The notes beneath the pieces are model-generated. The model was given only the letters and a program-made list of their open reading frames with translations. It did not search any database and was not told the origin of the DNA. A program made the position numbers and the translations under genes. A stretch of DNA of 17,954 nucleotides, taken from NCBI GenBank assembly GCA_000715605.1, contig KL568521.1, positions 23,819 through 41,772 on the forward strand, in the 5' to 3' direction. Origin of the DNA: Streptomyces speibonae (GTDB lineage: Bacteria > Actinomycetota > Actinomycetes > Streptomycetales > Streptomycetaceae). Shown piece by piece: positions 6,742 through 9,700 of this stretch; positions within the stretch are counted from its first letter, which is position 1, and every line of letters begins with the position of its first letter.

Positions 6742-9700
6742 TCAGACCTCTTCGACGCTGCTCGGCTCGCGCCGGGACAGGTCGATGCCGAGCTCCTCCG
6801 CAGCGCGGAAGACGTCCTCGTCGGTGTCACGCATCTCGATGGACATACCGTCGCTGGACAGCACCTCCACGTTCAGGCACAGGGACTGCATCTCCTTGAT
6901 GAGGACCTTGAAGGACTCGGGGATGCCGGGCTCGGGGATGTTCTCGCCCTTGACGATGGCCTCGTAGACCTTCACGCGGCCGGTGACGTCGTCGGACTTG
7001 ATGGTCAGCAGCTCCTGGAGCGCGTAGGCGGCGCCGTACGCCTCGAGTGCCCACACCTCCATCTCGCCGAACCGCTGGCCACCGAACTGAGCCTTACCGC
7101 CCAGCGGCTGCTGGGTGATCATGGAGTACGGACCGGTCGAACGCGCGTGCAGCTTGTCGTCGACCAGGTGGTGCAGCTTCAGGATGTACATGTAGCCGAC
7201 CGAGATCGGGTCCGGGAACGGCTCACCGCTGCGGCCGTCGAACAGCCGCGCCTTGCCGGACGGCAGGACCATGCGGTCGCCGTCGCGGTTCGGGATGGTG
7301 TGGTCCAGCAGACCGGCGAGCTCGTCCTCGCGGGCGCCGTCGAAGACCGGGGTGGCCACGTTGGTACGGGGCTCCACGCGGTCCGCGCCGATCGCCTGGA
7401 GGCGCTGCGCCCACTCGTCGGCGAGACCGGAGACGTCCCAGCCCTGGCTGGCGAGCCAGCCGAGGTGGATCTCCAGGACCTGTCCCGGGTTCATCCGGGA
7501 CGGGACACCGAGCGGGTTGAGGATGATGTCGACCGGGGTCCCGTCCTCGAGGAACGGCATGTCCTCGATGGGCAGGATCTTGGAGATGACGCCCTTGTTG
7601 CCGTGGCGGCCGGCGAGCTTGTCACCGTCGGTGATCTTGCGCTTCTGCGCGACGTAGACGCGCACCAGCTGGTTGACACCGGGGGGAAGCTCGTCGCCCT
7701 CCTCACGGTCGAAGACGCGGACGCCGATGACCTTGCCGGTCTCGCCGTGCGGCACCTTCAGCGAGGTGTCACGGACCTCACGGGCCTTCTCACCGAAGAT
7801 CGCGCGCAGCAGACGCTCCTCGGGGGTCAGCTCGGTCTCGCCCTTGGGCGTGACCTTGCCGACGAGGATGTCACCGGCGATGACCTCGGCACCGATGCGG
7901 ATGATGCCGCGCTCGTCGAGGTCGGCGAGGACCTCCTCGGAGACGTTCGGGATGTCCCGGGTGATCTCCTCGGGGCCGAGCTTGGTGTCACGGGCGTCGA
8001 CCTCGTGCTCCTCGATGTGGATCGAGGAGAGGACGTCGTCCTGCACGAGGCGCTGCGACAGGATGATCGCGTCCTCGTAGTTGTGACCCTCCCACGGCAT
8101 GAACGCGACCAGCAGGTTCTTGCCGAGCGCCATCTCACCGTTCTGGGTGGCCGGACCGTCGGCGAGGACCTGGCCCTCGATGATCCGGTCGCCCTCGGCG
8201 ACGATGACCTTCTGGTTGACCGAGGTGCCCTGGTTGGACCGGGAGAACTTGGCGAGGCGGTACGTGATGTACGTGCCGTCGTCGTTGGCGGTGGTGATGT
8301 AGTCCGCGGAGACCTCCTGGACCACACCCGCCTTCTCGGCCTTGACCACGTCGCCGGCGTCGACGGCGGAGCGGTACTCCATGCCGGTGCCGACGAGCGG
8401 GGACTCGCTCTTGATCAGCGGCACGGCCTGGCGCATCATGTTCGCGCCCATGAGGGCACGGTTGGCGTCGTCGTGCTCGAGGAACGGGATCATGGCGGTC
8501 GCGACCGACACCATCTGGCGCGGCGAGACGTCCATGTAGTCGACCTCGTCACCGGGGACGTAGTCGACCTCGCCGCCGCGGCGGCGGACCAGGATGCGGT
8601 TCTCGGCGAAGCGCATGTCGTCGTTGAGCGGCGCGTTGGCCTGCGCGATGACGAAGCGGTCCTCCTCGTCGGCGGTCAGGTAGTCCACCTCGTCGGTGAC
8701 CTGGCCGTCGACGACCTTGCGGTACGGCGTCTCGATGAAGCCGAACGGGTTGATCCGCCCGTAGGAGGCGAGCGAACCGATCAGACCGATGTTCGGGCCT
8801 TCCGGCGTCTCGATCGGGCACATGCGGCCGTAGTGCGAGGGGTGCACGTCACGGACCTCGAAGCCGGCCCGCTCACGGGAGAGACCACCCGGGCCGAGGG
8901 CGTTGAGACGGCGCTTGTGCGTCAGCCCCGACAGCGGGTTGTTCTGGTCCATGAACTGGGACAGCTGGCTGGTGCCGAAGAACTCCTTGATGGAAGCGAC
9001 GACCGGCCGGATGTTGATCAGGGTCTGCGGCGTGATCGCCTCGACGTCCTGGGTGGTCATGCGCTCGCGCACGACGCGCTCCATACGGGCGAGACCCGTA
9101 CGGACCTGGTTCTGGATCAGCTCGCCGACGTTGCGGATGCGGCGGTTGCCGAAGTGGTCGATGTCGTCGGTCTCGACGATGATCGAGCGGCCCGACTCGC
9201 CGACCGTCTCGGTCTCCCCGGCGTGCAGCTTCACCAGGTACTTGATGGTGGCGATGATGTCGTCGGTGGTGAGCACGCCGGCGTCCAGCGGCTCGTCCCC
9301 GCCGAGCTTCTTGTTCACCTTGTAGCGGCCGACCTTGGCGAGGTCGTAGCGCTTGGGGTTGAAGTACAGGTTCTCCAGCAGCGTCTGCGCGGCCTCACGG
9401 GTGGGGGGCTCGCCCGGACGCAGCTTGCGGTAGATGTCGAGCAGCGCGTCGTCCTGGCCCTGGGTGTGGTCCTTCTCCAGGGTGGCGCGCATGGACTCGT
9501 ACTCGCCGAACTCCTCGAGGATCTGCTCGGTGGTCCAGCCGAGCGCCTTCAGCAGGACGGTGACGGACTGCTTGCGCTTGCGGTCGATGCGCACACCGAC
9601 CATGTCGCGCTTGTCGATCTCCATCTCCAGCCAGGCACCCCGGGAAGGGATGATCTTGGCGGAGAAGATGTCCTTGTCGGACGTCTTGTCGATGGAGGAG

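What the first reader, a model, noticed from the sequence alone, without database searches (positions are those of the whole stretch)
8902..8904. RpoB residue 442 (E. coli 531) is Asn instead of the usual Ser: possible intrinsic rifamycin resistance
The rifampicin-region sequence reads HKRRLNALGPGG, where I expect HKRRLSALGPGG from Streptomyces, Mycobacterium and E. coli. Counting from the TTG start gives His437, Arg440 and Asn442, which fits the published Streptomyces numbering I remember. Position 531 is one of the main rifampicin contacts. Asn at this site is associated with natural resistance in some bacteria, including certain rifamycin-insensitive or duplicate RpoB proteins. Because rif-type RpoB changes also alter secondary metabolism in Streptomyces, the residue could affect more than drug response. 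The rest of the rif region looks wild type.
Basis: partly seen in the sequence, partly recalled or inferred. Interest (0 to 1): 0.72.

Follow-up and report, generated by a model that had tools for sequence, protein, structure and literature searches.

The report
Natural Asn/Ser variant in Streptomyces RpoB
The bacterium's RNA polymerase has asparagine where most relatives have serine at a rifampicin contact, but this is a common natural variant already described in the laboratory species Streptomyces lividans, so it is not good evidence of strong drug resistance.

Summary
rpoB lies on the minus strand (6742-10257); bases 8902-8904 read AAC (Asn) in THKRRLNALGPGG, residue 442 from the TTG start. 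It is the only rpoB found in an 82%-complete assembly.

It is not an oddity. 82 of 390 Streptomyces genomes with readable rpoB have Asn. The 19 closest rpoB genes among 249 other scored genomes are all Asn, arguing against a base-call error. A tree of 184 rpoB genes needs 17 Ser/Asn switches.

It is in print: PMC2667423 (passages) gives wild-type S. lividans as Asn here, with N442Y among rif mutations that activate antibiotic synthesis.

The effect on rifampicin is unsettled. E. coli S531N gives resistance (PMC7073797, passages); a 2001 title links N531 to natural resistance in Treponema. Against strong resistance: S. lividans yields rif mutants, and reverting N426H abolished resistance of Nonomuraea rpoB(R), listed as also carrying S431N (PMC5431353, PMC3536979, passages).

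Asn and Arr genomes overlap more than expected, but lineage explains much of this and the controlled test is weak. Verdict: ordinary lineage polymorphism, probably with at most a modest drug effect.

The parts
6742..10257 (-). rpoB, RNA polymerase beta subunit, 1171 aa from GTG or 1161 aa from the TTG at codon 11
   Evidence: TIGR02013 1812.5 bits, cut-off 801.15
8902..8904 (-). codon AAC, Asn442 (TTG numbering; E. coli 531 equivalent)
8863..8976 (-). rifampicin region stretch GTSQLSQFMDQNNPLSGLTHKRRLNALGPGGLSRERAG (38 codons, Asn442 is the 25th)
   Evidence: ends worked out from the codon position
2738..6646 (-). downstream open frame, rpoC by its start and position (read by eye)
   Evidence: not searched against a family library

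Best explanation
Asn442 is the native, lineage-wide residue of the only rpoB found in this Streptomyces. Ser and Asn are two common natural states at this rifampicin-pocket position within the genus; both occur as the sole RpoB of living species, so both give a working RNA polymerase, and the site has switched many times. Asn replaces the serine hydroxyl that contacts rifampicin with a bulkier amide, so it probably lowers rifamycin affinity somewhat (inferred from E. coli S531N). In Streptomyces it is probably not enough for high-level resistance and is better seen as the background of species such as S. lividans. Shown here: the residue, its frequency, its nearest relatives and the least number of switches. 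Inferred: the size and direction of the drug effect.
For: 82 of 390 Streptomyces genomes carry Asn. The 19 nearest rpoB genes of 249 other scored genomes are Asn, and nine of nine rows of the window gene's starred clade are Asn (all Asn genomes but only 99 of 308 others were in that tree). Seventeen switches on the tree, 13 forced by starred branches. 8 of 10 genomes of one sister-family genus, and 17 of the 122 class genomes that matched the motif, in 8 families (148 searched, 26 without a match, Asn rows counted by eye), also carry Asn. S. lividans wild type is Asn, and N442Y is among the rif mutations said to activate antibiotics there (PMC2667423 passages). The closest PDB chain, 7vpd_C, has Asn (recalled to be S. 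coelicolor, organism not printed). Reverting N426H abolished rifampicin resistance of rpoB(R), whose listed changes include S431N.
Against: E. coli S531N is named with the substitutions that resist higher rifampicin concentrations, and N531 correlates with natural resistance in Treponema (title only), so the effect could be larger than stated. No MIC for this strain, and no side-by-side MIC of Asn and Ser Streptomyces, was seen. The rifampicin level in the rpoB(R) experiment was not seen.
Confidence: 0.75

Rival explanations
1. Asn442 is a real intrinsic resistance determinant: it hinders rifamycin binding enough to protect the strain in soils with rifamycin producers, and is kept by that selection.
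For: E. coli S531N; Treponema N531 title; natural S450N in M. branderi, of which the authors say it may confer resistance; at least 13 forced switches; Arr, a rifamycin-inactivating enzyme family, is more frequent in Asn genomes, 17 of 82 against 15 of 308, though lineage explains much of this.
Against: S. lividans with Asn still yields rif mutants; the N426H reversion of rpoB(R) abolished resistance; a review says rpoB polymorphisms in inherently resistant actinomycetes (5 of 75) lie preferentially in rare actinomycetes, not in Streptomyces.
Confidence: 0.18
2. Asn442 is neutral for drugs and drifts, carried along by ordinary recombination of rpoB between species.
For: Excess local divergence within 30 nt of the site is no larger than at 37 decoy synonymous sites (ratio 1.64 against mean 1.61).
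Against: Among 184 sequences only TCG 75, TCC 24, AAC 84 and AAT 1 are seen, although TCN to AAC takes two or three base changes, so some constraint is likely; the 121-240 nt band is at the high end of the decoys; E. coli data predict an effect.
Confidence: 0.3
3. Sequencing error or laboratory-selected rif mutant.
For: The assembly is incomplete (81.96%, 255 contigs).
Against: AAC or AAT in the 19 nearest rpoB genes and Asn in the same motif in 74 of 392 congeneric genomes.
Confidence: 0.01

Closest known systems
Streptomyces lividans wild-type RpoB (Asn442)
   Same: Same residue and numbering (PMC2667423 passages)
   Different: S. lividans has laboratory rif-selection data; this strain has none
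Nonomuraea rpoB(R) and Nocardia rpoB2, duplicate rifamycin-resistant RpoB
   Same: rpoB(R) is listed with S431N at the equivalent position (table in PMC3536979)
   Different: Those are second copies with Asn for His at E. coli 526 and further changes; here one copy was found and His437 is intact
Treponema RpoB N531
   Same: Asn at the E. coli 531 position
   Different: Correlated with natural rifampin resistance in print (title only); a spirochaete RNA polymerase
E. coli rpoB S531N
   Same: Same substitution at the same contact
   Different: An induced change in a Ser background, reported to resist rifampicin (passages)

Membership tests
bacterial rpoB (housekeeping beta subunit) | matches the rpoB equivalog model over cut-off | tested here: met
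   TIGR02013 1812.5 bits, cut-off 801.15
bacterial rpoB (housekeeping beta subunit) | single gene in the genome | tested here: met
   1 match in G000, assembly 82% complete; 1 match by DNA too
duplicate resistant rpoB, rpoB(R)/rpoB2 type | second rpoB copy present | tested here: not met
   the missing part of the genome was not seen
duplicate resistant rpoB, rpoB(R)/rpoB2 type | Asn in place of His at E. coli 526 | tested here: not met
   THKRRLN keeps His
naturally rifampicin-resistant RpoB by Asn531 (Treponema type) | Asn at the 531 equivalent | tested here: met
naturally rifampicin-resistant RpoB by Asn531 (Treponema type) | measured rifampicin resistance of the strain or enzyme | not testable with these tools
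   no phenotype data for the strain

The most novel reading that the evidence does not exclude
Ser442/Asn442 is a standing two-state polymorphism of the rifamycin target across Streptomyces. It has switched at least 13 times, with no intermediate codon in the sample, probably by recombination between species, and it sets each species' baseline rifamycin tolerance and possibly its secondary metabolism.
Probability: 0.25. Interest if true: 0.5.

Novelty: already known. Interest (0 to 1): 0.18.

Why it matters
A resistance caller that treats any non-Ser at this site as a rifampicin mutation would flag about a fifth of the Streptomyces species sampled here. If the Asn form does change rifamycin affinity, then work on 'rif' mutations in S. 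lividans and its relatives starts from a different target than work in Ser species, and comparisons across species should allow for it.

Tried and rejected
Arr link: Arr (PF12120) is in 17 of 82 Asn genomes and 15 of 308 others (Fisher p 2.7e-5). Of the 17, 13 share one site haplotype held by 30 genomes; on the tree, 7 of the 17 lie in one clade of ten and 3 in a clade of four. The other Asn genomes give 4 of 52 against 15 of 308 (p 0.50). Over 12 independent pairs Arr went with Asn in 1.6 on average and against it in 0.2; median p 1, and so few informative pairs cannot reach 0.05. Only 8 of the 15 other Arr genomes were in the tree. I do not claim a link; it is not excluded either.

Site-specific recombination or selection: 34 disjoint Asn-Ser pairs show excess divergence within 30 nt (0.0887 against 0.0535, 0 of 2000 draws). 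In 10 of 11 hand-picked, mostly isolated Asn rows the local neighbours are mostly Asn; G367 is the exception, G313 and G295 also have mostly Asn neighbours gene-wide, and the nearest Ser row of G288 has mostly Asn local neighbours too. But 37 decoy synonymous sites (40 tried of 43 candidates) show the same near-site excess, so it is not special to this codon. The 121-240 nt band was high (ratio 1.54; decoy mean 1.18, 90th percentile 1.43, maximum 1.60), which is suggestive only.

Other rifamycin genes in G000: HelR model best 412.6 bits (cut-off 750); Rph model best 251.9 bits (cut-off 999); Arr none. Rox, Iri, rifampicin glycosyltransferase and rifamycin biosynthesis genes were not searched.

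Papers sought and not held: Stamm 2001, Hu 2002, Newell 2006.

Full report
What is there. The open frame 6742-10257 on the minus strand encodes RpoB (TIGR02013 1812.5 bits over a cut-off of 801.15). The codon at 8902-8904 is GTT on the plus strand and AAC on the coding strand. It is residue 452 from the first GTG and 442 from the TTG at codon 11. The rif stretch (8863-8976) is GTSQLSQFMDQNNPLSGLTHKRRLNALGPGGLSRERAG; apart from this residue it is as in Ser-bearing relatives printed. One rpoB was found in the genome, which is 8.76 Mb in 255 contigs and 82% complete.

How common it is. A pattern for HKRRL-any-ALGP matched 382 of 392 congeneric genomes, and the Asn pattern matched 74 of 392. Of the ten genomes without the motif, eight have HKRRLNSLGP, that is Asn plus Ser for Ala at the next residue, and two have no rpoB hit. 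That gives 82 Asn of 390 readable genomes. Of the other 308, I read 99 as Ser; for the rest I only know that the Asn pattern did not match. Among 41 relatives, 13 have Asn, including 4 of 25 Streptomyces and 8 of 10 genomes of one genus of a sister family. In a class-wide sample 122 of 148 genomes matched the motif and 17 of those have Asn, in 8 families (Asn rows counted by eye); G104, known to be Asn with the altered motif, is one of the 26 without a match, so 17 is a floor.

Nearest relatives and history. Ranked by whole-gene DNA score, the 19 rpoB genes nearest to the window's are all in the Asn set; the 20th and 21st (G093, G164) are not (250 of 392 genomes scored, 142 left unscored by the tool). 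I built trees from 184 rpoB segments (99 Ser, 85 Asn including 3 outgroup rows) with the site codons removed. All 82 Asn genomes of the genus but only 99 of the other 308 were in it. The tree needs 17 Ser/Asn changes, of which starred branches force 13; shuffled labels need about 61 (also 17 with another program). The window's gene lies in a starred clade of nine rows, all Asn (SH-aLRT 97). Codons are TCG 75, TCC 24, AAC 84, AAT 1, so no intermediate was seen in this sample. The local sequence within 30 nt travels with the state, but so it does around decoy synonymous sites. I therefore read this as ordinary local linkage or recombination in rpoB, not as a signal special to this residue.

What it does. 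Evidence for an effect on rifampicin is from elsewhere. In E. coli, S531N is named among bulkier substitutions that resist higher concentrations (PMC7073797, passages). N531 correlates with natural resistance in Treponema (title in a reference list; paper not held). M. branderi has natural S450N, of which the authors say it may confer resistance (PMC13246000, passages). Evidence against a strong effect comes from actinomycetes. Carata et al. 2009 (PMC2667423, passages) state that the residue is asparagine in S. lividans and that N442Y activates antibiotic synthesis there. The review PMC3536979 (passages) lists S. lividans and S. [quoted passage not shown] PMC5431353 (passages) says that reverting Asn426 to His abrogated rifampicin resistance and antibiotic activation by rpoB(R) in S. 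lividans. That S431N remained in the revertant is my inference from their wording. The same paper labels the tyrosine change S531Y, which by the 426/526 offset should be near 574, so the numbering in print is not consistent. The rifampicin level used was not seen.

Other determinants. Arr was not found in G000, and nothing exceeded the HelR or Rph cut-offs; the assembly is incomplete. Across the genus Arr is in 17 of 82 Asn genomes against 15 of 308 others. The 17 are bunched in a few clades, and a test on independent pairs has too few informative pairs to decide, leaning weakly towards a link.

Known or new. The residue itself is in print as wild type in S. lividans. The closest PDB chain (7vpd_C, ten entries) also has Asn; I recall it as S. 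coelicolor, but the tool printed no organism. 8dy7_C, recalled as S. venezuelae, has Ser. None of the ten searches made, which cover open-licence papers only and of which I saw listings, showed a paper on the genus-wide Ser/Asn distribution.

Verdict. But it is a common natural state, already known in a model strain, and probably of at most modest effect on rifampicin.

Noticed in passing
L062-L069 (8 Streptomyces genomes): All 8 readable genomes without Ala after the site have Ser there together with Asn442 (HKRRLNSLGP); the other 382 of 392 have at least one ALGP motif.
   Followed up: partly
184 rpoB loci: Only TCG, TCC, AAC and AAT codons at this site; Ser AGY or other one-step intermediates are absent from the sample despite at least 13 switches.
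   Followed up: partly
392 Streptomyces genomes: Arr is more frequent in Asn442 genomes (17 of 82 against 15 of 308), bunched in a few clades; not resolved.
   Followed up: partly
G000 contig C50 82784-85590: PEP-synthase/Rph-like match in two pieces (251.9 and 97.6 bits), below the Rph cut-off.
   Followed up: no
G000 contigs C8, C10, C15: HelD-like helicase matches in three places, all below the HelR cut-off (best 412.6 of 750 bits).
   Followed up: no
G532: Three matches of the Asn motif in one genome of another family; could be rpoB duplication or repeated sequence near contig ends.
   Followed up: no
window 11337-16063, minus strand: Ribosomal-protein L10-, L11- and NusG-like frames (by eye) and a tRNA-Trp upstream of rpoBC, the usual neighbours.
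   Followed up: no
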